A program made the position numbers and the translations under genes. A DNA stretch of 64,000 nucleotides, from positions 27,895,064-27,959,063 of the forward strand of contig NC_088296.1 of assembly GCF_032854445.1 (NCBI RefSeq), read 5' to 3'. This DNA comes from Liolophura sinensis (Eukaryota > Mollusca > Polyplacophora > Chitonida > Chitonidae). Position 1 is the stretch's first letter. Every line of letters starts with the position of its first letter. The notes under the pieces are model-generated. The model did not search any database. It was not told the DNA's origin and saw only the letters and a list, made by a program, of their open reading frames with translations. Positions 7,916 to 63,934 of the stretch are shown here, piece after piece.

Positions 7916-8014
7916 AAAGGATGGACAGCCTTACACTGTGGAGCTTGGAAAAACAACGTGGATGCTGTTCGTGTGCTGCTGGAGAAGGGCGCTGATGTAA
8001 ATGTACAGAATCAG
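7916..8014 (+). CDS. Ankyrin repeat exon, class B
   Basis: This is the first ankyrin exon in the window: 99 bp, 33 codons, one complete repeat. It follows acceptor TTATACAG and ends at donor GTATAG, which is weaker than the GTACGT used by its neighbours. The peptide starts K-G-W-T-A-L-H with GAW in place of the usual AAL, then [16 protein letters not shown], which fits helix 2 and the loop of an ankyrin repeat. It ends in QNQ where class A ends in QDK. It appears to be the intact parent of the short exon scars (GAAGGGCGCTGATG...AATCAG) seen through the 13-23 kb array. Upstream exons are not identifiable, so the true 5' end of the gene is unknown. Confidence 0.82.
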
Positions 8015-8900
8015 GTATAGGTGATGTATGGATATGAGGCCACAATGCTTAAAATCTCAACCCAGATAAGTACCCGTTCTCAGTATATTGAGAAGTAAAT
8101 TGAACATAAACAACAACAATAATATGCAGAAAGAAGAATTAAACTAAATTAAATTAAATTCCCTTTGTCTTTGAAGCCAGTATTTCAAACAATCAGCTCC
8201 GTGTCATCATCTCAGGTACTATGTTTACATCTGGTTGTGTTAAACACCAGTTGGTCACAGAGAAGTGCACGTTTATCACTGGCTTTGGTGGCCGTCATTT
8301 TCGCCAGCGAACGTTTTGACTTGATTCCTGTTGCCAGATTAACCTGGTCTTCAAATTATTGAACAAATACCTGAGGCGTAGTGCCAATTAGTCGACGTGC
8401 CATATCCTAGATACAGAACATTGATTATCGATCGTTGACAATTTTTTTCTGAGCCATATAATTTAAGCCATATACGGGCCGTCAGGCGGTCGATAGATCG
8501 AGTTTTCAAAGTTAAAACAGTTACTGTTATGTAGATGAGAATTACATTTCTAATAGCATATGGTCCTGAAAGACATTCTTCAATTTAAAGGAATGTGTTT
8601 TGTGGCATTTTATGTTCAATAAAGAGAGTTACGCCGTGCCAAAATTCAAAGGTGTCAGTGGCATAAGCACCACTTCGCCATATGAAGAGTCTAATCAGCT
8701 GTCTACTTGTCATGTCACGTGATCTATATCAAGCTATTCAGGTGGGATCGGCGATGTTCGGCCGGCAAGTTCAAATTAGGCAGAGTTGAAATACCTGATA
8801 CCTGATACGACACCAAAAAAAACAGCTCATTATCGTTTTATTTTTAAATTCCTCGTATGAAGTATCTTTTCAAGTATTACATTATATATACTTTGCACAG
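8015..8900 (+). repeat. Intron between exons B and A, made of repeated segments
   Basis: The section 8140-8290 (around AGCCAGTATTTCAAACAATC) recurs at 9700-9790 and 44115-44220. The section 8340-8880 (AATATTGAACAAATACCTGAG to the exon acceptor) recurs at 44405-44800 and 49690-50270. These shared introns tie exon 8901 to exon 50280 and to the region around 44.4 kb. No independent gene is seen. Confidence 0.7.
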
Positions 8901-8999
8901 GATGGGTTGACACCTTTGCACTGTGCAGCTCTGAAAAACAGTGCGGATGTTGTTCGTGTGCTACTGGAGAAGGGCGGTGATATCGGTGCACAGGATAAG
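8901..8999 (+). CDS. Ankyrin repeat exon, class A
   Basis: A 99-bp phase-0 exon between acceptor TTTGCACAG and donor GTACGTGG. The repeat reads D-G-L-T-P-L-H-C-A-A in the first hairpin and helix, then [12 protein letters not shown] and ends QDK. Two features are unusual: GG in place of the near-invariant GA before D, and IGAQ in the loop. The exon is followed by the class A intron start (GTACGTGGTATACTGATGTGAGG). A dead LINE separates it from the next A exon, as the LINE at 44.8-47.7 kb does for exon 43488. Confidence 0.88.
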
Positions 9000-9510
9000 G
9001 TACGTGGTATACTGATGTGAGGCCGGCCACAATACTTGACAATAGATTGTGCTTTGCTATTTACTTTTCTTACATGCAAATGACGCTTGAATTTCAAGAT
9101 CTGTACTAGGCACCAAATCCACCGGCTGCAACTAAATAAATTTGCTCTACATATAATATAATAAGTGATCTATTTCAACTTCCATCTTTAGAACGACGAC
9201 GCATATTTTATGACCTCTTTTTGTAGTCCGAAGATGTAAGTAACATATTCCGTTTGACAACTGTAACGCCAAAATAACGCCAGTGTGATGTGTGCCTATG
9301 ATATACAGACACATAGACAGAGTGATTACAATAGGCAAACTGGAAAATCAGTACATTGAGAAGCGAAATGAACAAGTTCTACCCATTTTCAGCCACACAT
9401 AAATGTCTGCAACGCCTAACACTCTCATATCTGTATTTTTGATTCAGATTTAATTTTAAAAATGAGACCACTGCATTTATAAAGTTCTAATTTACTCTTA
9501 CAATATACAG

Positions 9511-9547
9511 TAAGGATAGACACCTTTTCACTTTCCTCGTGTGACAG
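9511..9547 (+). pseudogene. Exon scar related to class B
   Basis: After an acceptor-like ATATACAG, the sequence TAAGGATAGACACC resembles the start of exon 7916 (AAAGGATGGACAGCC) but degenerates within about 30 bp and has no donor. The same scar is at 43915-43952, so the damage predates the duplication that made the two halves of the window. Confidence 0.6.
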
Positions 9548-10067
9548 GAATGAATTATGGCACGGTAGGCCTACACAAGATGAGAACTCGTCGAATGACG
9601 CACTGGTATAATTTTATTGCATTTTATGAAACAAAATATAAAAAACACAACATATGCAGTTATACAGAAATGAGAATTGAACCAAATTAAATTCCATCTG
9701 CCTTTAAAGCCAGAATTTCAAATGATCAGCTTCGTGTCGTCAGCTCAGATCCCATGTTTATATCTGGTTGTGTCCAACACCATATGGCCAGAAAGAAGTG
9801 GCCAAATGTGCACAGTTTATCTCGTTAAAATATATCCAATAATGTTAAATTGTTCCATAAATATTAAATTAAAATATGTAGTCCAAATCACAGACTGATT
9901 TAATAATGGTCTTTTGTCTAGACAATATCTTGCAATCGGGGGCCATTGCCTCATCTTGTTTTACTCAGACAAATTGGAAGCGTTTTTTTCGCATCGCCTG
10001 ATGCAAGTAAAATAACTGAGGATATAGGCAAGTGTATTTTGGACATTTGTAATATCTTTATTCCAAA

Positions 10068-10311
10068 TATTTATTTATTTATTTCATTGGTGTTTTACGC
10101 CATACTCAAGAATATTTTACTTATACGGCGGTGGCCAGCATTATGGTGGGAGGAAACCCCGACCATCAGCAGGTTGCTGCCAGGACCTTTCCACGTGCGG
10201 TCAGAGAGGAAGCCAGCATGAGCTGGACTCACAGCGACCGCACTGATAAGAGGCTCCTGGATCATTACACTGCGTTAGCGCGCTAACCATCTGAGCCACG
10301 GAGGGCCCCTC
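10068..10311 (-). mobile_element. tRNA-derived SINE, family A, inside the LINE
   Basis: On the minus strand the head near 10310 reads GGGGCCCTCCGTGGCTCAG, followed by GTTAGCGCGCTAACG-type sequence (A box). A B-box-like segment follows, then the body and the end GAGTATGGCGTAAAACACC with an AAAT tail. ATTCCAAA (10060) and AATCCAAA (10312) flank it and look like a target-site duplication. The right LINE copy has the same insertion (45244-45512), so it predates the duplication. Confidence 0.88.
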
Positions 10312-10344
10312 AATCCAAACAAATATGTCATTATTAGACCTCGT

Positions 10345-12600
10345 GATAAACCTTGGGTAACTAATGAACTCCGCCTGTCCATGACCAAACGAGGTAGAGA
10401 GAACTCAAATAGAGATGCCGACTGGGCAAACATTTCAGACGAATTATAAATGATACCATAACCCTCAATAGAAGGACTGGAGAGAAGTGCGATAAAGGCT
10501 TAGATGCTGCTATTTCTAATGAAGCCTCTGGCTCCGAAAATTGATGAACGTTGATTAAATATCTACCAAAAACCAAGGTAAATCGTCTGGGTTATGCTCT
10601 ATGCAGCTCAACAGTAATACATACACTGAGTCACACAATACTGCAAATGCATTTAATTGCCCGCCAAACAGAACTGGATGATGGTATTGCTGTCTTGCCT
10701 GCCTCCCCGCCCATGGCCAGTAACACTTTAGAGTGAGTGAGTGAGTGCTTGGGGTTTAACGTCGTTCTCAACAATTTTTCAGTCATATGACGACGAAGGA
10801 ATCATTAGGGTGCATGCACGTGTAATGTGCCTCCTTGTTGCAGGACGGATTCCCACCGCTCTTTTATTTAGTGCTGCATCACTGAGACGACTTACCGAAG
10901 GCAAGTAAGTCGCCCCGCCCGAGCCATTATACTGATACGGGTCAACCAGTCGTTGCACTATCCCCTTCATGCTGAACGCCAAGCGAGGAAGTTACAACTT
11001 CCTCTTTTAAAGTCTTAGGTGTGACTCGACCAAGGATTGATCCTTGATCTACCGGTCCCGAAGCGGACGCTCTACCAACTGTGCTATCCGGGCCGGTAAC
11101 ACTTTAGATGTTGTCACGATATCATCTCAAGAAGTTGAGGACATTCTCTCCAGCTTAGACATGTCGAAATCCTTTGGACGTGACGGGATTCACAATCGAG
11201 CCACTTGCGTCATGCCACTTGTCTGGAAAGAAGCCTGTATCACCCCAATCCATAAAAAAGGCCGTGCTGACGACATTGAAAATTACAGGCCTATTTCGCT
11301 CACGAGCAATTTAACACTTTTACAGTTTCCTGCTTAATAGAAATGTACTTAGTAATTTACAGTCTGGATTTCGCTCTGGTAACGGTACAGTTTACTAACT
11401 GGTGGATATTTACAGCTATATATCCAGTGCTCTTGATGGCGGAAAAGAGGTGCGTGCTGTTTTTTGTGACATGAAAAAGGCATTTGATCGTGTTTGCCAC
11501 AGGTCTACTTTACAAGCTCGACAAAGCTGGTGGAAACGGGATTCTTCTCTTGTGGATTAAAGATTATTTAGCTAACAGAAAAATATCGGTTAATATATCT
11601 GGAAAAACCTCTGCTGAAAAATCCTAAATTCAGGTGTTCCACAAGGTTCGGTTTTAGGACCCATCCATTTCCTTGACTATATAAATGATATTGCGCGCGA
11701 CTTCGGGGCTCAAGTTAGATCAAATTTGCTGACGACAAGCCTTTATATTTAACCTTTAAAACTCCCAATATTGGTATGGACATAAATGCAACGCACAGCC
11801 TCATGCACAATTGTTTGTGCAAGGCAATCCCATCTCGGATGTCTTCTCACTTAAAAACCTCGGCCTCATCTGCACGATGGAAGGACCATATAAACAATTT
11901 AGTTGTAAAACTTTTCCATATGTTAAACTGTTTTAGAAGCTTGAAATACCGAGGCTCGCGTCAGTCACTGGAGCGCTTATATCAGTGGTTTATTCTTCCA
12001 CATTTTGACTATCTGGGATAATTGTTTTGCATATCAAACTGAAATATTAGAAAATCTTCATTTAGATGCATTGCGCACCATATCTGGCTGTACTCGTGGT
12101 ACCAGTCAACACTTATTATACACTGAAACTGGGATTCTCCCACTATCAGAACGAAGAAGTAGGCCTAAGTTAAAGCCCTGTTTAAAATGTTTTATAATAT
12201 ATCTCCAGGTTACTTAAGCCAACTTTTGCCCTTGTCGGTAGGCACACAACACTATAATCTAAGAAACTGGCAACATCTTTATTCGCCAACTTATTTGTCC
12301 CATCCACTTCTCGAAAGTGGAATAATCTTCCTTAAGATATTCAAAAAACTACTTTTTGTGATTTTTGTAGATCACTATTTAAAGATGCTAAGGTTCCAAA
12401 ATATTACTATAGGTCTAACAGACAAGTTGAAAATATCCACACACAACTTCGTCTGGGTTGTTCCCAACTAAAAGCACACATGTTTGCAAGGCACATTTCT
12501 AACTCTGCATGTTGGGCTTGTGGCCATCAAATCGAAGCTTGCTTCCTTTTTTTTTTCACAAGAGCCCTAAGTATGGAGCATGTAGATTAGACATCTTCGG
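10345..12600 (+). pseudogene. LINE reverse transcriptase remnant, left
   Basis: Pieces of the RT are readable in shifting frames. The segment at 11100-11337 contains IHKKGRADDIENYRPISL, the conserved pre-palm motif. Near 11470 comes KAFDRV (motif A with its catalytic Asp), and near 11635 GVPQGSVLGP (motif B). The motif C region near 11725 is shifted out of frame by a small deletion compared with the right copy, where LFTDDK is readable. Several stops separate these pieces. The protein would have copied the LINE's own RNA; this copy cannot. Confidence 0.85.
10733..11095 (-). mobile_element. tRNA-derived SINE, family B, full length
   Basis: Read on the minus strand, GGCCCGGATAGCACAGTTGG (A-box-like, 11095 downward) is followed by TAGAGCGTCCGCTTCGGG and a B-box-like GGTCGAGTCACACC. 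A conserved body follows, and the tail is CACTCACTCACTC at 10733. It is flanked by perfect 13-bp target-site duplications, GTAACACTTTAGA at 10720-10732 and 11096-11108. The equivalent point in the right LINE (about 45890) is an empty site, so this insertion postdates the duplication. Confidence 0.93.
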
Positions 12601-12839
12601 ACATACGAAGACTAAATAATTTACGACCTAGAAAGTCTCCTTTATGGTAATCGTTTATTATCACCATGTAAAAATGTTGCAATATTTGATCAACTACAAG
12701 ACCTTGTTCTTGCAATAAAAAAATTGAAAAAAATTAATGAACTACTACTTCTTACTGTAGCGTACCCCTGCCCCCTCCCCCAACACACAAATCTGGACAC
12801 ATAACACTGTTGTATTAAATTATCTGTGCACGTGTATGC

Positions 12840-13111
<272 letters not shown>

Positions 13112-13290
13112 GTATAACCAAATTTCATATAATCAAAATCACAAAGACATAGTGATTTTCAAAAGGCGAAGTGGAAAATCAGTACATTCAGAAGTGAAAT
13201 GAACAAAACGTGCCCATTTCCAATCGTATATAAATGTCAACAACGCCTTACACGCTCAGGTATTTATTCAAATTCATAAAATAAGACGCT

Positions 13291-13321
13291 GAAGGGCGCT
13301 GATGTCAATGTACAGAATCAG
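13291..13321 (+). pseudogene. Exon B scar 1
   Basis: GAAGGGCGCTGATGTCAATG and AATCAG match the last third of exon 7916. The acceptor and first two thirds are deleted, and the donor is changed to GCGTAG. It is not a usable exon. Confidence 0.8.
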
Positions 13322-13711: not shown

Positions 13712-13810
13712 AATGGGTGGACACTTTTGCACTGTGCAGCCCAGAGTAACAGTGTGGGTGTTGTTCGTGTGCTACTGGAGAAGGGCGCTGATATCGATGT
13801 ACAGGATAAG
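13712..13810 (+). CDS. Ankyrin repeat exon, class A, array unit 1
   Basis: A 99-bp phase-0 exon with acceptor TTTCCACAG and donor GTACGTGAT. The repeat starts N-G-W-T-L-L-H-C; the usual P of TPLH is L here, a change shared only with exon 18418. The turn after helix 1 is AAQSNSVG, and helix 2 is [12 protein letters not shown] with DVQDK at the end. AAQSNSVG is closest to AAESNSVG in exon 21762, so these two share ancestry in their 5' halves. All splice signals are intact. Confidence 0.9.
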
Positions 13811-14893: not shown

Positions 14894-14992
14894 AATGGGT
14901 GGACACCTTTGCACTATGCAGCTTGGAATAACAGTGTGGATGTTGTTCGTGTGCTGCTGGAGAAGGGCGCTGATATCGATGCAAAGGAGAAG
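14894..14992 (+). CDS. Ankyrin repeat exon, class A, array unit 2
   Basis: A 99-bp phase-0 exon, acceptor TTTCCACAG, donor GTAGGTGAT. NGWTPLHYAAW keeps the complete TPLH signature, with Trp at the first variable position after AA. Helix 2 is [12 protein letters not shown]. The end is DAKEK instead of DVQDK, the only A exon here lacking the QD pair. The C-terminal change sits in the loop that joins the next repeat. The exon otherwise looks fully functional. Confidence 0.9.
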
Positions 14993-15986: not shown

Positions 15987-16085
15987 AATGGGCGTACACC
16001 TTTGTACTGTGCAGTCCGAAAAGACAATGTGGGTGTTGTTCTTATGCTGCTGGAGGAGGGTGCTGATATCGATGCACAGGATAAG
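15987..16085 (+). CDS. Ankyrin repeat exon, class A, array unit 3
   Basis: A 99-bp phase-0 exon with acceptor TTTACACAG and donor GTACGTGAT. NGRTPLYCAVRKDNVG carries Arg at the GxT position and Y for the H of TPLH. Helix 2 is VVLMLLEEGADI in place of [12 protein letters not shown], and the end is DAQDK. From CCTTTGTACTGTGC to GATATC it is identical to exon 17499 as far as I can read, which points to very recent duplication or gene conversion between them. Confidence 0.9.
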
Positions 16086-17498: not shown

Positions 17499-17597
17499 AA
17501 TGGGTGGACACCTTTGTACTGTGCAGTCCGAAAAGACAATGTGGGTGTTGTTCTTATGCTGCTGGAGGAGGGTGCTGATATCAATGTACAGGATAAG
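17499..17597 (+). CDS. Ankyrin repeat exon, class A, array unit 4
   Basis: A 99-bp phase-0 exon, acceptor TTTACACAG, donor GTACGTGAT. It shares AVRKDNVG and VVLMLLEEGADI with exon 15987 but differs at both ends: NGW in place of NGR, and NVQDK in place of DAQDK. The pattern fits conversion of an internal tract between otherwise distinct exons. The preceding intron is 1.4 kb, the longest in the array, owing to a partly duplicated intron segment. Confidence 0.9.
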
Positions 17598-18417: not shown

Positions 18418-18516
18418 AATGGGAGCACACTTTTGCAATGTGCATTCCTGAAAGACAATGCGGGTGTTGTTCTTATGCTACTGGAGAAGGATGCTGATAT
18501 TAACGTACAGGATAAC
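18418..18516 (+). CDS. Ankyrin repeat exon, class A, array unit 5, diverged
   Basis: A 99-bp phase-0 exon, acceptor TTAGCACAG, donor GTACGTGG. The frame is open but core positions are weakened: TLLQCAF replaces TPLHCAA, EKDAD replaces EKGAD (the loop glycine is lost), and the last codon is AAC, so the exon ends in C just before GT, a poor donor context. It may be under relaxed constraint or spliced inefficiently. Helix 2 (VVLMLLEK) still fits the fold. Confidence 0.78.
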
Positions 18517-19676: not shown

Positions 19677-19775
19677 AATGGGTGGACACCTTTGTACTAT
19701 GCAGCCTTGAATAACAGTGTGGATATTGTTCGTGTGCTGCTGGAGAAGGGCGCTGATGTCAGTGTACAGGATAAG
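19677..19775 (+). CDS. Ankyrin repeat exon, class A, array unit 6
   Basis: A 99-bp phase-0 exon, acceptor TTTGCACAG, donor GTACGTGAT. NGWTPLYYAALNNSVD is followed by [12 protein letters not shown] and SVQDK. The AALNNSVDIV block is shared with exon 20610. Class A exons with ADV (this one, 20610, 23022, 43488, 48256, 50280) form one subgroup and those with ADI another. All signals are intact. Confidence 0.91.
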
Positions 19776-20609: not shown

Positions 20610-20708
20610 AATGTGTGGACACCTTTGCACTATGCAGCCTTGAATAACAGTGTGGATATTGTTCATGTGCTGCTGAAGAAGGGCGCTGATGTTAATGTAC
20701 AGGATAAG
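20610..20708 (+). CDS. Ankyrin repeat exon, class A, array unit 7
   Basis: A 99-bp phase-0 exon, acceptor TTTACACAG, donor GTACGTGAT. It starts N-V-W-T: the glycine of the N-G turn is Val through a single base change (GGG to GTG), unusual for an ankyrin hairpin. The rest is canonical: TPLHYAALNNSVD, IVHVLLKKGADV, NVQDK. The preceding intron lost the exon B scar and its flanks by a deletion joining AGCGCCTTA to GCAGCTGACAATTG near 20474. Confidence 0.89.
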
Positions 20709-21761: not shown

Positions 21762-21860
21762 AATGGGTGGACACCTTTGCACTGTGCAGCCGAGAGTAAC
21801 AGTGTGGGTGTTGTTCTTATGCTGCTGGAGAAGGGCGCTGATATCGATGCTCAGGATAAG
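21762..21860 (+). CDS. Ankyrin repeat exon, class A, array unit 8
   Basis: A 99-bp phase-0 exon, acceptor TTTCCACAG, donor GTACGTGAT. It looks mosaic. The first half (NGWTPLHCAAESNSVG) resembles exon 13712, while the second (VVLMLLEKGADI, DAQDK) resembles exon 15987. Both halves are canonical ankyrin sequence and the exon looks functional. Glu follows AA, giving a distinct charge at a surface position. Confidence 0.9.
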
Positions 21861-23021: not shown

Positions 23022-23120
23022 GTTGGGCGGACACCTTTGTACTATGCTGCCCTGAAAGACAATGTGGATGTTGTTCGTGTGCTGCTGGAGAAGGGTGCTG
23101 ATGTCAATGTACAGGATAAG
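23022..23120 (+). CDS. Ankyrin repeat exon, class A, array unit 9 (last of array)
   Basis: A 99-bp phase-0 exon, acceptor TTTGTACAG, donor GTACGTGAT. The first codon is GTT (Val), a change shared with exon 43488 (V-G-Q-T). The repeat reads [33 protein letters not shown]. Sharing Val with 43488 hints that these two are close paralogues across the two halves. After this exon the array decays into exon-tail fragments (23480 and 23848). Confidence 0.9.
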
Positions 23121-26610: not shown

Positions 26611-26613
26611 TTA

Positions 26614-28175: not shown

Positions 28176-28274
28176 GACGGGAGGACCGCTTTGCGCATCG
28201 CGTCAGAGTTAAACCATGCGGGCGTTGTTGTTCTGCTGGTAAAGAAGGCTGAGGATGCCAGTGTACAGGATAAG
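28176..28274 (+). CDS. Ankyrin repeat exon, class F, left
   Basis: A 99-bp phase-0 exon, acceptor CATAATTCAG, donor GTATGTGAT. The repeat DGRTALRIASELNHAG, VVVLLVKKAEDA, SVQDK is less canonical than class A. IAS replaces LAA or CAA, and KAEDA replaces KGADV, so the loop glycine is missing in both F copies. That both copies keep the same unusual KKAEDASVQDK argues that it is a real feature of class F and not decay. Its partner is 52585-52683. Confidence 0.84.
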
Positions 28275-29102: not shown

Positions 29103-29201
29103 AGAGGCCAGATGTCTTTGCACAAGGCAGTAACGGACGGTGATATAGACAGAGTGCGTCTACTCGTGAAGAAAGGAGTGAGTCTCACAACACAGGATCA
29201 G
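29103..29201 (+). CDS. Ankyrin repeat exon, class G, single copy in window
   Basis: A 99-bp phase-0 exon, acceptor CAACCCACAG, donor GTATGTTGA. The repeat is RGQMSLHKAVTDGDID, RVRLLVKKGVSL, TTQDQ. MSLH stands for TPLH, and DGDIDRVRLLVKKG is a good helix 2 and turn. It lacks any copy on the right half, where a roughly 1-kb deletion removes its position (about 53200). It is the only exon class represented once besides B. Confidence 0.84.
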
Positions 29202-32133: not shown

Positions 32134-32232
32134 GAAGGAGAAACGGCTGTTCATTGGGCAGTGTGTAAAAATAATGCGGATATTGTCCGTCAGATTGTGG
32201 ATCTGGACGGGGATATCAACATTCAGAATAAG
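32134..32232 (+). CDS. Ankyrin repeat exon, class E', left
   Basis: A 99-bp phase-0 exon, acceptor CATTCCACAG, donor GTGAGTTG. The repeat is EGETAVHWAVCKNNAD, IVRQIVDLDGDI, NIQNK. TAVHWAV matches the TPLHxAA pattern, and the loop has DLDGD in place of EKGAD. The right copy (55426) has lost the last two codons. Partial, frameshifted relatives of this exon's first half occur at 34649, 36852, 58706 and 61646. Confidence 0.87.
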
Positions 32233-33915: not shown

Positions 33916-34016
33916 GAGGGAAAGACGCCATTACTCCTGGCTCATCGGAGACAAATGATCTGAATCGCCTTCGTCTCCTAGTGAGGAATGGAGTTGATGT
34001 CAACATTCAGGATCCA
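33916..34016 (+). pseudogene. Ankyrin exon, class C, left, frameshifted
   Basis: Acceptor GGTACACAG and donor GTACGTCAT are intact, but the exon is 101 bp. In the incoming phase, EGKTPLLLAHR is followed by a stop at codon 16. The tail LVRNGVDVNIQD is readable only in another frame. Compared with class D, two extra bases lie around CATCGGAGACAAAT. Inclusion would truncate the protein. The next possible AG, 3 bp downstream, does not cure the phase. Copies at 60903 and 63833 have one more base upstream and are in frame. Confidence 0.85.
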
Positions 34017-35542: not shown

Positions 35543-35641
35543 GACGGAAAGACGCCTTTGCTTTTAGCACTGAGGGCAAATAATCTGGATCTTGCTCATC
35601 TGTTGGTAAAGAGAGGCGCTGATGTCAATGTACAGAATAAG
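35543..35641 (+). CDS. Ankyrin repeat exon, class D, left copy 1
   Basis: A 99-bp phase-0 exon, acceptor AACTTTTACAG, donor GTATGTGG. The repeat is DGKTPLLLALRANNLD, LAHLLVKRGADV, NVQNK. Compared with other D exons it has LAHLLVK where they have LVRLLVE or LVRQLVE, and QNK where they have QNE. The pre-exon intron (35235-35520) contains an extra piece that starts with a near-copy of the D acceptor (CATACTATTTTTAATTTTACCAG), a possible decoy. Confidence 0.9.
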
Positions 35642-37455: not shown

Positions 37456-37554
37456 GATGGAAAGACGCCTTTGCTTTTAGCCCTAAGGGCAAATAATCTG
37501 GATCTTGTTCGTCAGTTGGTAGAGAGAGGCGCTGATGTCAATGTACAGAATGAG
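37456..37554 (+). CDS. Ankyrin repeat exon, class D, left copy 2
   Basis: A 99-bp phase-0 exon, acceptor AACTTTTACAG, donor GTATGTGG. The repeat is DGKTPLLLALRANNLD, LVRQLVERGADV, NVQNE. It arose with relic 36852 and SINE 37164 by tandem duplication of the 34.6-36.3 kb segment. Gln at VRQL is shared with class E' helix 2 (IVRQIV) but is probably independent. Confidence 0.9.
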
Positions 37555-38343: not shown

Positions 38344-38442
38344 GAAGGAGAGACGGCGTTGTTTTGGGCAGTGAGGATAGATGATATGAACCTTGTTCGT
38401 CTGTTGATAAAGCACGGAGCCAATGTCAACGTACAGAATAAG
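38344..38442 (+). CDS. Ankyrin repeat exon, class E, left
   Basis: A 99-bp phase-0 exon, acceptor CATCCCACAG, donor GTACGTAC. The repeat is EGETALFWAVRIDDMN, LVRLLIKHGANV, NVQNK. TALFWAV replaces TPLHWAV, and GAN stands for GAD, which is common in ankyrin repeats. The right copies (59830, 62761) differ mainly in the helix 1 to helix 2 turn (RTGDLN against RIDDMN) and in the donor. This is the last exon before a roughly 5-kb stretch without ankyrin sequence. Confidence 0.9.
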
Positions 38443-43487: not shown

Positions 43488-43586
43488 GTTGGGCAAACAC
43501 CTTTGCACTATGCAGCCCTGAAAAACAGTGTGGGTGTTGTTCGTGTGCTGCTGGAGAAGGGCGCTAATGTCAATGTACAGGATAAG
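43488..43586 (+). CDS. Ankyrin repeat exon, class A, first of right half
   Basis: A 99-bp phase-0 exon, acceptor TTTGCACAG, donor GTACGTGAT. The repeat is [33 protein letters not shown]. The following intron is a deleted version of that after exon 8901 and leads to the same class B scar and the same LINE, which sets it as the right-half counterpart of 8901. Its coding sequence, however, is closer to exon 23022 (first codon GTT), a sign of exchange between exons. Confidence 0.9.
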
Positions 43587-45512: not shown

Positions 45513-46129
45513 ATTCCAAACAAATATGTCAATATCAGACCTCATGATAAGCCTTGGGTAATTAATGAACTCCGCCTGTCCATGCGCAAACGAGATAGAG
45601 AGAACTCAAAAAGAGCGGCCGACTGGGCAAATTTCGGACAAATTATAAATGATACCATAACCCTCAATAGGAGCACAAGGGAGAACTGTGATAAAAGGTT
45701 AGATGCTGCTATTTCTAATGAAGCCCTTGGCTTCAAAAATTGATGAGCGTTGACTAAATATCTAGCAAAAACAGTAATATATACACTGAGTTACAAAATA
45801 TTGCAAATGAATTTAATGAATACATTGCCCGCCAAACAGAACTGGGTGACGGTAATGCTGTCTTGCCTGCTTCCCCGCACATGGCCAACAACACCGTAGT
45901 CGTTGTGACGACATCATCTCATGAAGTTGAGGACATTATCTCCAGCTTATACCTGTCGAAATCCGTTGGACCTGACGGGACTCACAATCGATTTTAAAGA
46001 CCTGTGCGTCAGTGTTATCTACACCTTTGTGTAGACTCTTTAATCTGTGTCTTGCCTGTTGTGTCATGCCACTTGTCTAGAAACAAGTATATCTGACTTC
46101 CATCTATAAAAATAGGCCGTGTTGATGAC

Positions 46130-47724
46130 ACTGAAAATTGTAGGCCTACCTCGCTCACGACCAATTTAAGTAAAGTCTTTGAAAGGTGCATTCACAAACA
46201 CCTTTACGATTTCATGATTGATAACAATGTACTTAGTAATTTACAGTCTGGATTTCGCTCTTGTAACAGTACAGTTTACGATCTGGTGGATATTTACAAC
46301 CAGGCATGCAGTGCCCCTGATTGTGGGAAAGAGGTGAGCGCTGTGTTTTGTGACGTTAACAAGGCATTCGATCGTGTTTGGCACAACGATCTACTTTACA
46401 AACTCGACGAACTGATGCAAATTGGAATCTTCTCTTGTGGATTAAATACTATTTAGCTAACAGAAAAATATCGGTTGTTATATCTGGAAAAACATCTCCT
46501 CAAAAAGTCTTAAATGCTGGTGTTCCACAAGGTTCGGTTTTAGGACCCGTCCTGTTCCTTGACTATATAAATGATATTGCGTGCGACTTCGGAGCTCAGG
46601 TTAGATTATTTACCGACGACAAGCCTTTGTATTTAACCGATAAAACTCCAGATATTGCGACCAATGGACTTGATCAAGAAAAAGAAAGAAAGTATCAGTC
46701 TGGGCCGATAATTGGCTAATCAATTTAACATTAAAACTGTGTCTCGTGTCTTTTCACATAAACGCAACGCAGAGCCTCATCCAACATTGTTTATGCAAGA
46801 CAATCCTATCACGGATGTGTCCTCACATAAGCACCTCGGCCTTATCTGCAAGGTGGAAGGCCCATATAAACAATCTAGTTGTACAGAGTTTTCCCATGAT
46901 AAATTGTTTTAGAGGCATGGAATGAACAAGCTCTCGCGTCAATCTATAGAGCGCTTATATCTGTCCTTTATCCTGACTCATTTTTGACTATGATTTTTTA
47001 TATAGCCAACTGAAATATTAGAAAATCTTCATTCAAGTGCATTACGTACCATATCTGGCTGTACTCGTGGTACCAGTCAAAATTTATTATACACTGAAGC
47101 TGGGATTCTTCCTCTATCAGAACGAAGAAGTAGATATAAGTTAAAGCGCTTGTATAAAATGTTTCATAATAATTCATATCTCCAGGTTACTTAGGCCAGC
47201 TTACACCCTTGCCAGTAAGCACACAACACTATAATCTAAGAAACTCACAACATCTTTATTCGCCAACTTATTTGTCCCATCCACTACTCCTCATTGTGGA
47301 ATAATGTTCCTTAAGAAATTCGAAAAACTACTTTTCGTGATTTTTGTAGGTCACTATTTAAAGATGTTAGGGTTCCAAAGTATTACTATAGGCCTAACAG
47401 ACAAGTTGAAATTATCCACGCGCAACTTCGTATGGGTTGTTCCCAGCTAAAAGCACGCATGTTTGCGAGACACATTTCTGACTCTGCAAGTTGCGCCAGT
47501 GGTCGTCAAATCGAACATTGCTTACATTTCTTTCACAAGTGCCCTAATCTATGTTTGCACCACAAGTGCCCTAATCTATGTTTGCAGCATAGCTTAGACA
47601 TTTTCGGACCTACGGATACTATTCCAGGCGTAGAAAGCCTCCTTCATGGTAATCGTTTATTATCACGATGTAAAAATAATGCGATGTTTGATAAGCTTTA
47701 TTCTTGCAACAAAACGATTTAATT
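46130..47724 (+). pseudogene. LINE reverse transcriptase remnant, right
   Basis: The frame at 46214-46456 contains VFCDVNKAFDRVWH (motif A, catalytic Asp) and then shifts. The overlapping frame at 46378-46719 holds GVPQGSVLGP (motif B) and LFTDDK (motif C, both catalytic Asp residues). After further breaks, the C-terminal zinc-finger-like HCLHFFHKCPN appears at about 47515, followed by a 27-bp in-frame tandem duplication (CACAAGTGCCCTAATC). Frameshifts near 46440 and 46710 make it inactive. Confidence 0.88.
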
Positions 47725-47750
47725 AACTACTACTTTTTATTGTAGCTTAC

Positions 47751-48255: not shown

Positions 48256-48354
48256 GATGAGAGGACACCTTTGCACTGTGCAGCACTCAATAACAGTGTG
48301 GGTGTTGTTCATGTGCTGCTGGAGAAGGGCGCTGATGTCAATGTACAGGATAAG
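48256..48354 (+). CDS. Ankyrin repeat exon, class A, right half second
   Basis: A 99-bp phase-0 exon, acceptor TTTGCACAG, donor GTACGTGAT. It begins D-E-R-T: Glu replaces the hairpin Gly through GAG for GGG. The rest is canonical: TPLHCAALNNSVG, VVHVLLEKGADV, NVQDK. It sits at the place of the whole left array, so it may represent the pre-expansion state of a single A exon after the LINE. Confidence 0.9.
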
Positions 48355-50279: not shown

Positions 50280-50378
50280 GATGGGAAGACACCTTTGCAC
50301 TGTGCAGCTCTTAAAAACAGTGTGGATGTTCTTCGTTTGCTGCTAGAGAAGGGTACTGATGTGAATGTACAGGATAAG
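50280..50378 (+). CDS. Ankyrin repeat exon, class A, right half third
   Basis: A 99-bp phase-0 exon, acceptor GGTTCTCAG (unlike the TTTGCACAG of other class A exons), donor GTACGTGAT. The repeat is DGKTPLHCAALKNSVD, VLRLLLEKGTDV, NVQDK. It has a near-consensus ankyrin core with GTD for GAD. The matching position in the left half (26610/26646) is a deletion joint, so this exon has no left counterpart there. Confidence 0.92.
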
Positions 50379-52584: not shown

Positions 52585-52683
52585 GAGGGGAGGACCGCTT
52601 TGGACATCGCGTCAGAGTGCAACCGTAAGGGCGTTGTTAAAGTGCTGTTGAAAAAGGCTGAGGATGCCAGTGTACAGGATAAG
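52585..52683 (+). CDS. Ankyrin repeat exon, class F, right
   Basis: A 99-bp phase-0 exon, acceptor CATAATTCAG, donor GTATGTAAT. The repeat is EGRTALDIASECNRKG, VVKVLLKKAEDA, SVQDK. Compared with 28176 it has TALDIAS and VVKVLLKK, both closer to consensus than the left copy, while KAEDASVQDK is unchanged. Substitutions between the copies keep the frame open. Confidence 0.88.
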
Positions 52684-55425: not shown

Positions 55426-55518
55426 GAAGGAGAAACGGCTGTACATTGGGCAGTGCTTAAAAATAATGTGGATCGTATCCGTCAGATTGTGGAACTGGGC
55501 GAGGATACGAGCATTCAG
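55426..55518 (+). CDS. Ankyrin repeat exon, class E', right, two codons short
   Basis: Acceptor CATTCCACAG. The exon reads EGETAVHWAVLKNNVD, RIRQIVELGEDT, SIQ and ends directly at donor GTGAGTTG. In exon 32134 the sequence between CAG and GTGAGT is AATAAG; here those 6 bp are deleted, so the donor joins the exon two codons earlier. At 93 bp (31 codons) the exon stays in phase 0. The repeat would lack its last two residues (N-K). ELGEDT is also unlike the usual EKGADV. Confidence 0.85.
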
Positions 55519-56965: not shown

Positions 56966-56966
56966 A

Positions 56967-57942: not shown

Positions 57943-58044
57943 GAGGGAAAAGACACCATTACTCCTGGCTCATCGGAGGCAAACGATCTGGATCGGCTTT
58001 GTCTCCTAATGAGGAATGGAGTTGATGTCAACATTCAAGATCTA
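57943..58044 (+). pseudogene. Ankyrin exon, class C, right copy 1, both splice sites lost
   Basis: This 102-bp equivalent of exon 60903 has ACACACG in place of ACACAG at the 5' side and ATACGT in place of GTACGT at the 3' side. The frame itself stays open (LMRNGVDVNIQDL end). With acceptor and donor both mutated it should be skipped. It carries both the early extra A (GGGAAAAG) and the later two-base insertion. Confidence 0.83.
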
Positions 58045-58705: not shown

Positions 58706-58730
58706 TTGTTCACTGGACAGTTCGTAAAAA
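58706..58730 (+). pseudogene. Half-exon relic of class E', copy 3
   Basis: TTGTTCACTGGACAGTTCGT follows TTTCACAG. It is shorter than the left relics because GAACGAGACAG is deleted, leaving about 25 bp, and there is no donor. Confidence 0.6.
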
Positions 58731-59021
58731 AAATATATCTTTATAGTGGAAACGTATTCCTTGTGTGTAGACAACTGGTGTAAAATTGCATAATCCAACT
58801 GTCCAGAAACGACGCTAATGTTATGTACACACTTTTGGAGTGTTTGCGTTATTTAATGTCAGGATGCTAATCGGTTCAGTGCTTGATTTTGTTGGTGTTT
58901 TCAGAAATGTTATCATATAGATTCTTTTTCCCAAATATAAACCTGTATGTGTCAAAAGCCTCCACGTCTTTTTTGACACTCAGGCCTGACTTCATCTATA
59001 TACTATTTTTAACTTTTACAG

Positions 59022-59120
59022 GATGGGAAGACGCCACTGCTTGTAGCTCTGAGGGCAAATAATCTTGATCTTGTTCGTCTGTTGGTAGAGAGAGGCGCTG
59101 ACGTCAATGTACAGAATGAG
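59022..59120 (+). CDS. Ankyrin repeat exon, class D, right cassette 1
   Basis: A 99-bp phase-0 exon, acceptor AACTTTTACAG, donor GTATGTGG. The repeat is DGKTPLLVALRANNLD, LVRLLVERGADV, NVQNE. TPLLVAL is the only class D copy with Val here. No SINE lies before it, in contrast to the left D exons, so the acceptor context is the ancestral one. Confidence 0.91.
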
Positions 59121-59249
59121 GTATGTGGTGTATAGTACGATGATTTTAACATTGTCTCTAACTCTAGACTACGTAAGACCAACACTAAAATACATGCATT
59201 ACTTTAGGTCTATTTCCAGGAATACAGTCTAAATTGATTCTCCATTGAG

Positions 59250-59526
59250 ATACCGCCTCTTATAGCACAGTTAGTAGAGCGTCCGCTTCGGGAGTGGTAG
59301 ATCCAGGATGAGTCCTGGGTCGAGTCACACCTAAGACTTTAAAAGAGGAAGTTGTAACTTCCTGGCTTGGCATTCAACATGACGGGAATAGTGCAACGAC
59401 TGGTTTTAGAGCGGTGGAAATCCGTCCTGCAACAAGGAGGCACATTACATACACCCTAAGGATTCCTTCGTCGTCATATGACTGACAAATTTTTAAGTAC
59501 GACGTTAAACACAAGCACTCACTCAC
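59250..59526 (+). mobile_element. tRNA-derived SINE, family B, internally deleted
   Basis: A-box-like TAGCACAGTTAGTAGAGCG and B-box-like GGGTCGAGTCACACC are followed by AAGAGGAAGTTGTAACTTCC. Compared with 10733-11095, the middle (TATAATGGCTCGGGCGG part) is deleted. The tail is CACTCACTC. Target-site duplications TCTCCATTGAG lie at 59239-59249 and 59527-59537. The left half has no SINE at this point (37680). Confidence 0.92.
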
Positions 59527-59701
59527 TCTCCATTGAGGTTCCGCTGTGCATGTAAATATTAGGAGATACAAAATACCAACAAATATAATGAATAATTATT
59601 TATTAAATAGATATGGCCAATGGTCGCTCAGTAGTGTTTTTAGACTAGCCTCGCAATTAGTACAATATCCTGGCAGACCATAGGAAAGAGATAATACTTT
59701 C

Positions 59702-59753
59702 TGGGGGGAGGGGGTTAGGATGGGTGGGGTGGTTGTGGGGTGGTTGTGGGGCA
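59702..59753 (+). other. G-rich tract, possible G-quadruplex, upstream of E exon
   Basis: Runs of GGGGGGAGGGGG, GGGTGGGG and repeated TTGTGGGG lie 77-128 bp before the E acceptor. At least four G-runs of three or more lie within 50 bp on the + (transcribed-RNA) strand. A copy lies at 62641-62692; the left cassette lacks it. Confidence 0.75.
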
Positions 59754-59829
59754 GTGGTAATTAATAATTAGAAACCAAACCTTGTATCGTGACAGTATAT
59801 AAATGACGTGTTATTGGGACATCCCACAG

Positions 59830-59928
59830 GAAGGAGAGACTGTATTGTTTGGGGCGATGAGGACAGGTGATTTGAACCTTGTTCGTCTGTTGATAAATCA
59901 CGGAGCCAATGTCAACGTACAGAATAAG
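59830..59928 (+). CDS. Ankyrin repeat exon, class E, right cassette 1
   Basis: A 99-bp phase-0 exon, acceptor CATCCCACAG, donor GTAAGGGC. The repeat is EGETVLFGAMRTGDLN, LVRLLINHGANV, NVQNK. FGAM differs from FWAM in copy 62761. RTGDLNLVRLLINHGANVN is an ideal turn and helix 2. Confidence 0.91.
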
Positions 59929-60902
59929 GTAAGGGCTGCATGGTTGTTTACAAAGAGAGCATGTTGGACCAAGAACCATATTAAACACCTAGTTTTATCT
60001 TCAAATACATGCGTTCACAAAAGTCAAAGACGGAAAGTTATTCACTTTGAGCATGAATTATATATACTATGCTACCTCTGGCGCAAACACAATATTACAT
60101 GAACAAAAATGATATTACCTTTGCAATCTACACCTAATTAAAGGTGAACTGACAAAAAAAAATTAGATCAACACTTCTCTACCCAAATATTTTGCAAATA
60201 AACGCCTGAACGTGCGTTAATATATTTTAAGTGCATTTGCAGTGTAGAAAAAAGAATCATTTTGCAGAAACATACACATGTACATGCTAAGGTAAGGGAA
60301 TTAACCAGTGTTTAAGACGGCTAACGTCTAAAGTCCTGGCTAATACTTGTCTCAATTTATACTTGCTGCAGAAGACTTCATCTTGGCTATACTGTTATGT
60401 CAGCAGGAAAGAATGGTGTCTTTGGATTTGCAATTAATTTGACGTCACTGATATAGAAGGACTCAACATGCTGAGTTGTCATCACATTTAACATACAATA
60501 CCATTAAAACAATACAAAGGAGCCAGGCCTTCTGGATGCTTAGTCCGCCAGCAGAATCGGGGAATACAGAGATACAATACAATAAATCTTACAGCAGTGT
60601 GATAGTTGGTAAATTGTCCCATGTGAAACATCGCTTCTTTTCATACAACGTCAATTACGGTTTTGTACTAACTACTTACGGAAATGCTTAAATGGTAATA
60701 AATTGCACGCACTTTAGCACGATGGTTTACGGAGCATTAGGTAAAAAAAGACTGTGATGTTAGTTGCAATTTCTTGTTTACTATAATACGTTTGAATTTA
60801 AAATGTTGGGAAAATGAAGTTTTGCGTGGTAGGAGAATAATTGCAAGTGCTGCAAGCCGGGAGATAAGGTCGTGGTTTGTATATTATTGTTACGGTACAC
60901 AG

Positions 60903-61004
60903 GAGGGAAAAGACACCATTACTCTTGGCTCATCGGAGAAAAGTGATATGGATCGCTTTCGTCTCCTAGTCAGAAATGGAGTTTATGTCAAAATTCAGGA
61001 TCTA
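60903..61004 (+). CDS. Ankyrin exon, class C, right copy 2, 34 codons in frame
   Basis: A 102-bp phase-0 exon, acceptor GGTACACAG, donor GTACGTCG. It reads EGKDTITLGSSEKSDMD, RFRLLVRNGVYV, KIQDL. The helix 2 half is a good ankyrin segment, but the TPLHLAA half is replaced by DTITLGSSE because an early +1 and a later +2 insertion leave about ten codons in a shifted frame. Whether this 34-residue unit folds as a repeat is doubtful. It can be spliced without breaking the protein frame. Confidence 0.75.
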
Positions 61005-61645
61005 GTACGTCGTTCACAGATCAAATGAAAGACCACGTTATCTATGTCAATGTAAACAATTTTAACAATGTTTTAATGTTAATTGGGTAAAAAATGTTTG
61101 AAAGACTTCAAAACTAAATCTAGACTCGAGGGAATCTGAATTGAATTTGTAATCGTATACTGATGATGCCTCGAATATCTTGAACAGAATTGGTACCATC
61201 GCTAAATATTTTTACGGTGTAATACCACAGTTTGGTTCATTTGACCGGAATACATTCCTAATGTGCTCTTAAGTGAGACAGACATGACATCAGTTACGGT
61301 ACTTTACCAGAAAGATGCCCAGATATATGTACCGAATGGTGCCGCAGGTTTACAGTAGCAAACAGTCCACGACTTTACACACACTGTGCTACTGAAGTCT
61401 GCATGCTTCAAACACAATCAGTCGTCACGTACATCATGCTCTAGTACCACACTGTGACATTAAATAAATGTCCGTGCCCTGGAAATAAAGCGACTCATAC
61501 AAGCATATATGTAAGTGGTAACACAGTCATGGAATGTACAGTTCGTTAGCTACATGAGCAACACTCACCATGGGCAAGACAGACAATACTACAAATAGCA
61601 CCTAACTATGTAAACAGTGTCGTCTCACTGTCACCGGTTTCACAG

Positions 61646-61670
61646 TTGTTCACTGGACAGTTCGTAAAAA
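61646..61670 (+). pseudogene. Half-exon relic of class E', copy 4
   Basis: The same short remnant (TTGTTCACTGGACAGTTCGT after TTTCACAG) as at 58706, carried along by the cassette duplication. Confidence 0.6.
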
Positions 61671-61957
61671 AATGTATCTTTATACTGGAAACGTATTCCT
61701 TGTGTGTAGACAACTGGTGTAAAATTATAGAATTCAAATGTTCAGAAACGACGCTAATGTTATGTACACACTTTTGGAGTGTTTGCGTTATTTAATGTCA
61801 GCATGCTAACCGGTTCAGTGCTTGATTTTGTTGGTGTTTTCAGAAATGGAATCATATAGAATTTTTTCCCAAATATAAACCTGTATGTCAAAAGTGTCCG
61901 GCCTTTTTGTGACACTTAACCCTGAATTCATCTACAAACTATTTTTAACTTTTACAG

Positions 61958-62056
61958 GATGGAAAGACGCCTTTGCTTTTAGCCCTGAGGGCAAATAATC
62001 TGGATCTTGTTCGTCTGTTGGTACAGAGAGGCGCTGACGTCAATGTACAGAATGAG
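61958..62056 (+). CDS. Ankyrin repeat exon, class D, right cassette 2
   Basis: A 99-bp phase-0 exon, acceptor AACTTTTACAG, donor GTATGTGG. The repeat is DGKTPLLLALRANNLD, LVRLLVQRGADV, NVQNE. Gln in LLVQRG is unique to this copy. Its nearest relative is 59022; TPLLLAL matches the left D exons. Confidence 0.91.
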
Positions 62057-62186
62057 GTATGTGGTGTATAGTTACGATGATTTTCACATTGTCTCTAACT
62101 CTAGACTACGTAAGACCATCACTAAAATACATGCATTACTTTAGGTTTATTTCCAGGAATACAGTCTAAATTGATTCTCCATTGAG

Positions 62187-62463
62187 ATACCGCCTCTTAT
62201 AGCACAGTTAGTAGAGCGTCCGCTTCGGGAGTGGTAGATCCAGGATGAGTCCTGGGTCGAGTCACACCTAAGACTTTAAAAGAGGAAGTTGTAACTTCCT
62301 GGCTTGGCATTCAACATGACGGGAATAGTGCAACGACTGGTTTTAGAGCGGTGGAAATCCGTCCTGCAACAAGGAGGCACATTACATACACCCTAAGGAT
62401 TCCTTCGTCGTCATATGACTGACAAATTTTTGAGTACGACGTTAAACACAAGCACTCTTTCAT
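62187..62463 (+). mobile_element. tRNA-derived SINE, family B, cassette 2 copy
   Basis: The same internally deleted element and position as 59250-59526. TCTCCATTGAG before it and the mutated TCTTCATTGAG after it mark the old target-site duplication. It was copied with the cassette and is not a new insertion. Confidence 0.92.
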
Positions 62464-62640
62464 TCTTCATTGAGGTTCCGCTGTGCATGTAAATATTAGG
62501 AGATACAAAAATACCAACAAATATAATGAATAATTATTCATTAAATAGATATGGCCAATGGTCGCTCAGTAGTGTTTTTAGACTAGCCTCTCAATTAGTA
62601 CAGTATCCTGGCAGACCATAGGAAAGAGATAATACTTTCT

Positions 62641-62692
62641 GGGTGGAGGGGGTTAGGATGGGTGGGGTGGTTGTGGGGTGGTTGTGGGGCAG
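62641..62692 (+). other. G-rich tract, cassette 2 copy
   Basis: The counterpart of 59702-59753 with GGGTGGAGGGGG at its start. It precedes exon 62761 by about 70 bp. Confidence 0.72.
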
Positions 62693-62760
62693 TGGTAATT
62701 AATAATTAGAAACCAAACCTTGTATCGTGACAATATATAAATGACGTGTTATTGTGACAG

Positions 62761-62859
62761 GAAGGAGAGACAGTTTTGTTTTGGGCGATGAGGACAGGTG
62801 ATTTGAACCTTGTTCGTCTGTTGATAAATCACGGAGCCAATGTCAACGTACAGAATAAG
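62761..62859 (+). CDS. Ankyrin repeat exon, class E, right cassette 2, altered acceptor
   Basis: A 99-bp phase-0 exon, donor GTAAGGGC. The repeat is EGETVLFWAMRTGDLN, LVRLLINHGANV, NVQNK. The acceptor region is TTATTGTGACAG, while the other E copies have GACATCCCACAG: six bases (ATCCCA type) are deleted, removing what little pyrimidine tract there was. The AG is retained, but splicing here may be weaker than at 59830. Confidence 0.86.
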
Positions 62860-63832
62860 GTAAGGGCTGCATGGTTGTTTACAAGGAGAGCATGCTGGGC
62901 CAAGAACCATATTAAATACCTAGTTTTATCTTCAAATACATGCGTTCACAAAAGTCAAAGACGGAAAGTTATTCACTTTGAGCATGAATTATATATACTA
63001 TGCTACCTCTGGCCAAACACAATATTACATGAACAAAAATGAAATTATATCTTTGCAATCTACACCTTATTAAAGATGAAAAGATAAAAAAATTAGATCA
63101 ACACTTCTCTACCCAAATATGTTGCAAATAAACGCCCGAACGTGCGTTTATATATTTCAAATGCATTTGCAGTGTAGAAAAAAGAATCATTTTGCAGAAA
63201 CATACACATGTACATGCTAAGGTAAGGGAATTAACCAGTGTTTAAGAGTCCTGGCTAATACTTGTCTCAATTTATATTTGCTGCAGAAGACTTCATCTTG
63301 GCTATACTGTTATGTCAGCAGGAAAGAATGGTGTCTTTGGATTTGCAATTAATTTGACGTCACTGGTATAGAAGGACTCAACATGCTGAGTTGTCATCAC
63401 ATTTAACATACAATACCATTAAAACAATGCAAAGGAACCAGGCCTTCTGGATGCTTAGTCCGCCAGCAGAATCGGGGAATATAGAGATACAATACAATAA
63501 ATCTTACAGCACAGAGAGTAACAGCAGTGTGATAGTTGGTAAATTGTCCCATGTGAAACATCGCTTCTTTTCATACAACGTCAATTACGGTTTTGTACTA
63601 ACTACTTACGGAATTGCTTAAATGGTAATAAATTGCGCGCCCTTTAGCACCATGGTTTACGGAGCATTAGGTAAAAAAAGACTGTGATGTTAGTTGCAAT
63701 TTCTTGTTTACTATAATACGTTTGAATTTAAAATGTTGGGAAAATGAAGTTTTGCGTGGTAGGAGAATAATTGCAAGTGCTGCAAGCCGGGAGATAAGGT
63801 CGTGGTTTGTATATTATTGTTACGGTACACAG

Positions 63833-63934
63833 GAGGGAAAAGACACCACTACTCTTGGCTCATCGGAGAAAAGTGATATGGATCGCTTTCGTCTCCTAGT
63901 CAGAAATGGAGTTTATGTCAAAATTCAGGATCTA
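63833..63934 (+). CDS. Ankyrin exon, class C, right copy 3, at window edge
   Basis: A 102-bp phase-0 exon, acceptor GGTACACAG, donor GTACGTCG. It differs from 60903 by one visible residue (DTTTLGSS against DTITLGSS). It shows that another cassette continues beyond 64000. The same doubt about the first half of the repeat applies. Confidence 0.75.

What the first reader, a model, noticed from the sequence alone, without database searches (positions are those of the whole stretch)
7916..63934. A 56-kb run of single-ankyrin-repeat, phase-0 exons with no other domain
Seen: 31 exons or near-exons, 25 of them exactly 99 bp, each coding one 33-residue repeat from D/N-G to Q-D/N-K and flanked by AG and GT in phase 0. 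Known: symmetric exons can be duplicated, lost or skipped without frame change. Inferred: a giant solenoid gene that evolves its length by exon gain and loss, possibly with variable exon inclusion. I do not know of a described gene with this exact architecture, and none can be named from the sequence alone.
Basis: partly seen in the sequence, partly recalled or inferred. Interest (0 to 1): 0.82.

Follow-up and report, generated by a model that had tools for sequence, protein, structure and literature searches.

The report
Chiton ankyrin-exon gene with Ig ectodomain
The repeated small exons are real and look like the inner part of one very long chiton (marine mollusc) gene, which beyond the window appears to continue into membrane-spanning and antibody-like parts and has several sister genes that seem to have gained and lost repeat exons independently.

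Summary
In detail: 25 exact 99-bp, phase-0, AG/GT ankyrin exons plus 6 altered ones on the + strand; 20 shuffled windows reached 12.8 bits at best. The array runs on to 97.5 kb with 10 more such exons, and it is not 'without other domain'. The last ankyrin exon is followed in phase by a transmembrane exon (TM1), an Ig V-like exon, a stalk exon and a second transmembrane exon. Forty joined exons stay open for 1383 residues. The last-ankyrin/TM1/Ig trio was found at 8 places in the genome; splice sites, lengths and frame are kept in 8 of 8. A likely first exon lies 5' of four clusters. Several paralogues show tandem exon-block spacings of their own. Assembly statistics match Liolophura sinensis, a chiton. 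Best reading: a tandem family of two-pass membrane proteins with a cytosolic ankyrin solenoid of variable length and an Ig ectodomain. Main rival: two abutting genes, TM1 being a signal peptide; only 2 of 8 copies exclude a start codon there. No transcript data were available.

The parts
7257..7355 (+). Likely first coding exon (ATG at 7284; N-terminal cap MKFNPGDFVRRLDPMVASVSAKDK), donor GTAAAC, phase 0
   Evidence: 4 matches in the genome, one 5' of each of the four + strand clusters on C2; ATG, acceptor and donor kept in 4 of 4, no indel
7916..8014 (+). ANK exon 1, 99 bp phase 0
8901..8999 (+). ANK exon, type A
13013..13111 (+). Degenerate ANK exon, 5' part and acceptor replaced by a TA repeat
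13712..13810 (+). ANK exon, type A
14894..14992 (+). ANK exon, type A
15987..16085 (+). ANK exon, type A
17499..17597 (+). ANK exon, type A
18418..18516 (+). ANK exon, type A
19677..19775 (+). ANK exon, type A
20610..20708 (+). ANK exon, type A
21762..21860 (+). ANK exon, type A
23022..23120 (+). ANK exon, type A
28176..28274 (+). ANK exon, type E
29103..29201 (+). ANK exon, type F (one copy seen in this gene)
32134..32232 (+). ANK exon, type D
33916..34016 (+). Type G exon, 101 nt, frame-shifted (would break the frame if spliced in)
35543..35641 (+). ANK exon, type B
37456..37554 (+). ANK exon, type B
38344..38442 (+). ANK exon, type C
43488..43586 (+). ANK exon, type A
48256..48354 (+). ANK exon, type A
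50280..50378 (+). ANK exon, type A
52585..52683 (+). ANK exon, type E
55426..55518 (+). Type D exon shortened to 93 nt, open, phase 0, donor GTGAGT; possibly usable
   Evidence: read by eye
57946..58044 (+). Type G relic, donor lost (AT), usual acceptor changed
59022..59120 (+). ANK exon, type B
59830..59928 (+). ANK exon, type C
60903..61004 (+). Type G exon, 102 nt, open, about the first third in a shifted frame
   Evidence: read by eye
61958..62056 (+). ANK exon, type B
62761..62859 (+). ANK exon, type C
63833..63934 (+). Type G exon, 102 nt, open, about the first third in a shifted frame; array continues beyond the window
   Evidence: read by eye

Best explanation
The window holds the likely first exon and 25 of 35 intact 99-bp ankyrin exons found for one gene of at least 92 kb (window coordinates 7257 to beyond 99500). 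The predicted product has an N-terminal cap, a cytosolic ankyrin solenoid, a first transmembrane helix, one extracellular Ig V-like domain with a short stalk, a second transmembrane helix and a basic cytosolic tail. It is one of a family on one chiton scaffold: 8 copies with TM1-Ig found, plus one cut off by the contig end. Sequence shows: exon chain, phases, open frame, 8-fold conservation of the ANK-TM1-Ig linkage, tandem exon-block spacings particular to several genes, dead exons. Inferred: that the exons are joined in one mRNA; the topology; and the function, namely that the Ig domain senses or adheres outside while the solenoid docks cytosolic partners, its length and surface changing by duplication of phase-0 exon-plus-intron blocks.
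For: The TM1 exon matches 8 places (8 candidates, all scored), each 3' of an ankyrin-exon cluster, with a last ankyrin exon in 8 of 8. The Ig exon has its 8 best matches 0.36-0.38 kb 3' of each TM1; the next match falls from 67% to 37% identity. The TM2 exon matches 8 places: 7 of the 8 genes plus one extra near M5. In 8 of 8 copies last-ANK, TM1 and Ig keep AG/GT and exact lengths 99/97/351; distinct gaps are 0/0/0 in the exons against 5 and 5 in the two introns. The exon-1 candidate matches 4 places, one 5' of each of the four + strand clusters on C2, with ATG and splice sites in 4 of 4. The joined chain of 40 exons is open, 1383 aa, with two hydrophobic segments over 1.6 mean Kyte-Doolittle. 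Pooled dN/dS: type B exons 0.28, last ANK 0.30, TM1 0.50. Type A variability concentrates at the ankyrin target-binding positions, permutation p 0.010. Repeated exon spacings particular to genes P0, P2, P3, M2, M4, M5.
Against: No transcript evidence. dN/dS is about 1 for type A exons (1.01), 0.81 for C, 1.17 for D, 1.60 for E and 0.87 for Ig; codon bootstraps of last ANK, TM1 and Ig over 8 copies all include 1, and B was not bootstrapped. The binding-position enrichment is absent in groups B and C (p 0.43 and 0.40). The Ig exon scores below Pfam's V-set cut-off (23.4 against 26 bits), and by eye the usual second Cys of the fold is not in its place. An ankyrin hit lies 3 kb 5' of the exon-1 candidate in gene P2 (28158716), and 0 of 5 minus-strand genes match exon 1. 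Gene M2 has no TM2 match. P2 has lost the stalk acceptor. The 3' end of the gene was not found. Exon synonymous divergence exceeds intron divergence in the 59/62-kb unit (0.164 on 7 changes against 0.020), unexplained.
Confidence: 0.62

Rival explanations
1. Two abutting genes duplicated together: an ankyrin-only gene, and a classic Ig receptor in which the 'TM1' exon is the signal peptide (signal peptide, V domain, stalk, TM, tail).
For: Exon order and phases (hydrophobic exon ending in phase 1, Ig exon 1-1, TM exon) are those of ordinary Ig receptors (recalled). 5 of 8 copies have an in-frame ATG upstream of TM1 when read through the intron, and a sixth (24400k) has a Met inside the TM1 exon ahead of the hydrophobic stretch.
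Against: 2 of 8 copies (27762k, 24619k) have no start codon in either place. The TM1 acceptor AG is kept in 8 of 8, behind a pyrimidine tract in the 6 copies aligned. The last ankyrin exon ends in a phase-matching donor 123-132 bp before it (6 copies measured). No alternative last exon for the ankyrin chain was seen, though none was searched for systematically.
Confidence: 0.26
2. A decaying array: a formerly functional repeat gene that is now a bed of pseudo-exons kept by segmental duplication.
For: Altered exons in the window, G and H exons dead or altered in the copies seen, type A dN/dS about 1.
Against: 35 exons intact in length, frame and splice sites. Last-ANK, TM1 and Ig exons free of indels in 8 of 8 copies where introns have them. 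B exons at pooled dN/dS 0.28.
Confidence: 0.08
3. The family size is inflated by uncollapsed haplotypes.
For: Flanks about 229-237 kb apart match over long collinear pieces at 89.6-98.4% (170 of 820 rows printed).
Against: Published heterozygosity is 1.24% and duplicated BUSCOs 0.9% (passages). Most flank pieces differ by 5-10%, and the Ig exon of P2 differs from the window copy by 33% in protein.
Confidence: 0.05
4. A canonical ankyrin (ZU5-UPA-death) or an ankyrin-rich TRP channel.
For: Many single-repeat exons; nearest solved structures by profile include Ankyrin-1/2, DARPins and NOMPC.
Against: ZU5 matches 8 places, none within 20 Mb of the locus on this scaffold. Ion_trans: 110 matches listed (150 of 198 candidates scored), none near the locus; the only ones on this scaffold are at 2.08 Mb.
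Confidence: 0.02

Closest known systems
Canonical metazoan ankyrins (ANK1/2/3; Ciona ankyrin)
   Same: Long runs of 33-residue repeats, largely one repeat per exon (recalled for vertebrates; Ciona exon counts from passages of PMC5135030)
   Different: No ZU5 match near the locus; exon-block make-up varies between paralogues; membrane and Ig exons follow in phase
Ankyrin-rich TRP channels (NOMPC, TRPA1)
   Same: N-terminal cytosolic ankyrin solenoid ahead of membrane helices (recalled); NOMPC among profile hits
   Different: No Ion_trans match near the locus; an Ig-like domain between two TM segments
Ig-superfamily type I receptors (signal peptide, V domain, stalk, TM, tail)
   Same: Phase-1 Ig exon, stalk exon, TM exon with basic stop-transfer
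   Different: The hydrophobic exon ahead of the Ig domain is placed as an internal exon behind an ankyrin array; a start codon ahead of it is possible in 6 of 8 copies and absent in 2
Tandemly duplicated repeat-exon genes
   Same: Domain repeats expanded by duplication of whole exons; PMC1553488 (passages) reports ankyrin domains duplicated several at a time
   Different: Here several paralogues each show their own block size

Membership tests
Ankyrin repeat (Pfam PF00023) | 33-residue helix-loop-helix repeat matching the profile | tested here: met
   25 of 25 window exons match PF00023 at E up to 1, best 8.2e-13
Canonical ankyrin (ANK1-3 type) | ZU5-ZU5-UPA module after the repeats | tested here: not met
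   8 ZU5 matches genome-wide, none near the locus; two on this scaffold at 3.06 Mb
Canonical ankyrin (ANK1-3 type) | Death domain | not tested
   No search made
Ankyrin-rich TRP channel | Six-TM ion transport domain after the repeats | tested here: not met
   110 Ion_trans matches listed (150 of 198 candidates scored), on this scaffold only at 2.08 Mb; the gene after TM2 was not fully traced
Immunoglobulin superfamily | Ig domain by profile | tested here: inconclusive
   98100-98450 exon: V-set E 7.2e-5 but 23.4 bits against a cut-off of 26; best PDB hits by sequence are antibody light chains, E 0.008 at best; by eye one Cys in the usual first place (LPCN) but none in the usual second place (KYSV)
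Type I Ig receptor | Start codon and signal peptide ahead of the Ig domain | tested here: inconclusive
   In-frame upstream ATG in 5 of 8 copies, Met inside the exon in one more, neither in 2 of 8
Mutually exclusive exon cluster (Dscam-like) | Only one or some exons of a cluster joined per mRNA | not testable with these tools
   No cDNA available

The most novel reading that the evidence does not exclude
A new family of two-pass membrane receptors in chitons in which a cytosolic ankyrin solenoid of gene-specific length, rebuilt by tandem exon-block duplication in each gene, is fused ahead of a fast-changing Ig V-like ectodomain: a recognition system that diversifies on both sides of the membrane by exon copy number and point change.
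Probability: 0.28. Interest if true: 0.78.

Novelty: new variant of a known kind. Interest (0 to 1): 0.6.

Why it matters
If the exons are joined as predicted, this is an unusual domain order (ankyrin array, TM, Ig, TM). The family also offers a natural experiment in how symmetric exons let a solenoid change length: close paralogues on one scaffold with countable exons, dead exons in place, and duplication units particular to single genes. It makes the question of whether solenoid length is selected or neutral directly testable by long-read cDNA and population exon counts. I know of no described protein with this domain order (recalled). The paper searches made here for ankyrin architecture showed none in the rows listed; several lists were cut (20 of 53, 6 of 7, 12 of 83, 10 of 59, 10 of 82), and no proteome database could be searched.

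Tried and rejected
Considered and rejected: chance (null); canonical ankyrin and TRP channel; haplotype artefact as the main account; RNA genes or tRNAs in the window (none reported); the 30-bp KGADVNVQNQ pieces as micro-exons (no AG directly before, 6 of 6). Paper searches gave nothing; the rows listed by 18, 50, 59, 63, 87 and 90 held nothing I recognised on this architecture from titles and abstract starts. PMC4358367 (passage search, one hit in its references), PMC5094078 (passages) and PMC12005716 (passage search with no hits) did not help. The Ig-like exons at 124366 and 130445 (window coordinates) were not assigned to this gene. Dropped rows: the position test used 13 of 14 type A exons, leaving out 7916, and was not run on types D and E. 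The 3' alignment used 5 of the 8 copies. The dN/dS figures pool all pairs, which are not independent.

Odds changed on rechecking: the claim that TM1 holds no Met was wrong for one copy (24400k), so only 2 of 8 copies, not 3, exclude a start codon there. I lowered the one-gene reading from 0.66 to 0.62, raised the two-gene rival from 0.22 to 0.26, and lowered the novel case from 0.30 to 0.28.
Full report
WHERE IT IS. The window is C2:27895064-27959063 of a 609,464,459-base, 632-contig assembly. The published assembly of a Liolophura chiton has 632 scaffolds, 609,495,693 bases and N50 37,343,639 (passages). That N50 equals the length of contig C9 here; the totals differ by about 31 kb. A correction renames the species L. 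sinensis (whole text). I take the window to be that genome. The identification rests on these numbers, not on a sequence comparison.

THE OBSERVATION. A scan for open 99-base stretches between AG and GT and a profile of the 25 seeds give 25 intact exons, all on the + strand, each a full 33-residue repeat. All 25 match PF00023. Shuffled windows gave nothing above 12.8 bits. Upstream of six type A exons, 420-421 bases away, sit 30-base remnants of an exon end (KGADVNVQNQ or close) without an acceptor. I read these as scars of past block duplication.

BEYOND THE WINDOW. With 100 kb fetched upstream and 150 kb downstream the array continues with 10 intact exons at 65006, 65547, 69795, 71536, 72682, 81998, 83711, 84897, 96994 and 97399. 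After the last one come, in matching phases: 97630-97726 (97 nt, phase 0 to 1, hydrophobic, TM1), 98100-98450 (351 nt, phase 1-1, Ig V-like: V-set E 7.2e-5, just under Pfam's cut-off), 98870-98941 (72 nt stalk) and 99407-99500 (94 nt, TM2 with a basic end). A short further exon with kept AG and GT seems to follow near 99977 (by eye); the 3' end was not found. At the 5' end, 7257-7355 carries an ATG at 7284 and ends in phase 0. Joined, these 40 exons give 1383 residues without a stop.

IS THE CHAIN REAL? Genome-wide, TM1 matches 8 places, each 3' of an ankyrin-exon cluster. The 8 best Ig matches lie 0.36-0.38 kb 3' of them, 67-100% identical, and the next match falls to 37%. TM2 matches 8 places: at 7 of the 8 genes plus a second one near M5; none for M2. 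The exon-1 candidate matches 4 places, one 5' of each of the four + strand clusters on C2, including one cut by the contig end; the five minus-strand genes gave no match, and in P2 an ankyrin hit lies 3 kb upstream of it. DNA of all 8 TM1-Ig sites (and the window copy) shows AG/GT and exact lengths 99, 97 and 351 in 8 of 8, with 0 distinct gaps in each exon and 5 in each intron. The stalk exon keeps its acceptor in 4 of 5 aligned copies; P2 has lost it. Skipping it would keep the frame.

SELECTION. Pooled pairwise dN/dS: B 0.28, C 0.81, D 1.17, E 1.60, A 1.01; last ANK 0.30, TM1 0.50, Ig 0.87 over 6 copies; the tandem units at 59/62 kb and 71/83 kb give 0.12 and 0.35 on few changes. Over 8 copies the codon bootstraps of last ANK, TM1 and Ig all include 1. 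So point-change constraint is shown only weakly; the strong evidence is frame, length and splice-site conservation. In type A exons variability is higher at positions 1, 3, 11, 12, 31 and 33, the target-binding positions of designed ankyrin proteins (positions recalled): mean entropy 1.23 against 0.67, permutation p 0.010; groups B and C show no such enrichment. That fits diversification of a binding face in the A block, but it is one of three groups tested.

HOW IT CHANGES LENGTH. The exons fall into types A to H (my labels), and their order shows block duplication: A-run, E, F, D, G, H, B, C, then shortened versions of the same block. In the six copies of each that were read (by eye), G carries a 2-base shift or worse, with the 60903 and 63833 copies back in frame at 102 nt by a further base, and only the first half of a repeat can be recognised in H. 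Lower-bound exon hits per gene are P0 26, P1 (window) 25, P2 21, P3 14 (cut), M1 16, M2 21, M3 2, M4 23, M5 33 (P1 in fact has 35 intact exons, so the others may be undercounts too). Spacings seen three times or more differ between genes: 3345 bp in P0, 4305 bp in M5, 2590 bp in P3, 1275 bp in P2, 3805 bp in M2, 780 bp in M4; P1, M1 and M3 show none in this test. This is what tandem duplication of exon-plus-intron blocks predicts, and phase-0 exons make each step frame-neutral.

HOW IT MAY WORK. Positive residues after TM2 (by eye) and the cytosolic habit of ankyrin repeats suggest both ends inside and the Ig domain outside. The best-supported guess is a surface protein whose Ig domain binds something outside while the solenoid holds partners inside. 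An immune or self-recognition role would fit the family's tandem growth and the variable middle of the Ig domain (dN 0.22 in codons 35-72 against 0.09 and 0.11 either side), but nothing here tests it.

WHAT IT IS NOT. ZU5 and ion-channel domains were not found near the locus. The canonical ankyrin of this genome is probably on C1 near 19.42-19.44 Mb, where ankyrin and ZU5 matches lie together.

MAIN DOUBT. The last ankyrin exon and TM1 are 132 bases apart in the window. If transcription starts between them, TM1 would be a signal peptide and this would be two genes. A start codon is possible in 6 of 8 copies (5 upstream in frame; 1 inside the exon) and not in the other 2; the acceptor is kept in 8 of 8. 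I prefer one gene, but only cDNA can settle it.

Noticed in passing
window coordinates -100000 to -62000 and 132000 to 174000 (loci L009-L012 and L025-L029): Two flanking stretches about 229-237 kb apart are collinear and mostly 90-95% identical (170 of 820 rows printed): a large tandem segmental duplication carrying the gene family.
   Followed up: partly
13292, 14474, 17079, 17997, 21342, 22602: Six 30-base remnants encoding KGADVNVQNQ (KGADINLQNQ in one), 420-421 bases upstream of a type A exon, without a preceding AG.
   Followed up: partly
C2:498305-571112 (-), C30:95999-207139 (-), C11:32706693-32819480 (+): Further clusters of similar ankyrin exons without a TM1 match; the C11 cluster ends at the contig end, so this may be a related family split by assembly.
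   Followed up: no
window coordinates 124366-124686, 152063, -77858, 129252, 130445: Other Ig-like exons downstream and upstream of the array, perhaps separate Ig genes in the same duplicated block.
   Followed up: no
window coordinates 186537-190752 and -41057 to -32451: A second, more diverged set of ankyrin exons; downstream 5 of 6 have AG and GT at the expected places, upstream 1 of 5.
   Followed up: no
window 46097-46453 (+): Reverse transcriptase fragment (PF00078, E 1.4e-11) inside the intron between 43586 and 48256.
   Followed up: no
C99: Contig C99 holds COX1 seven times at roughly 15.5-kb steps: probably head-to-tail mitochondrial copies, an assembly artefact or a nuclear insertion.
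   Followed up: no
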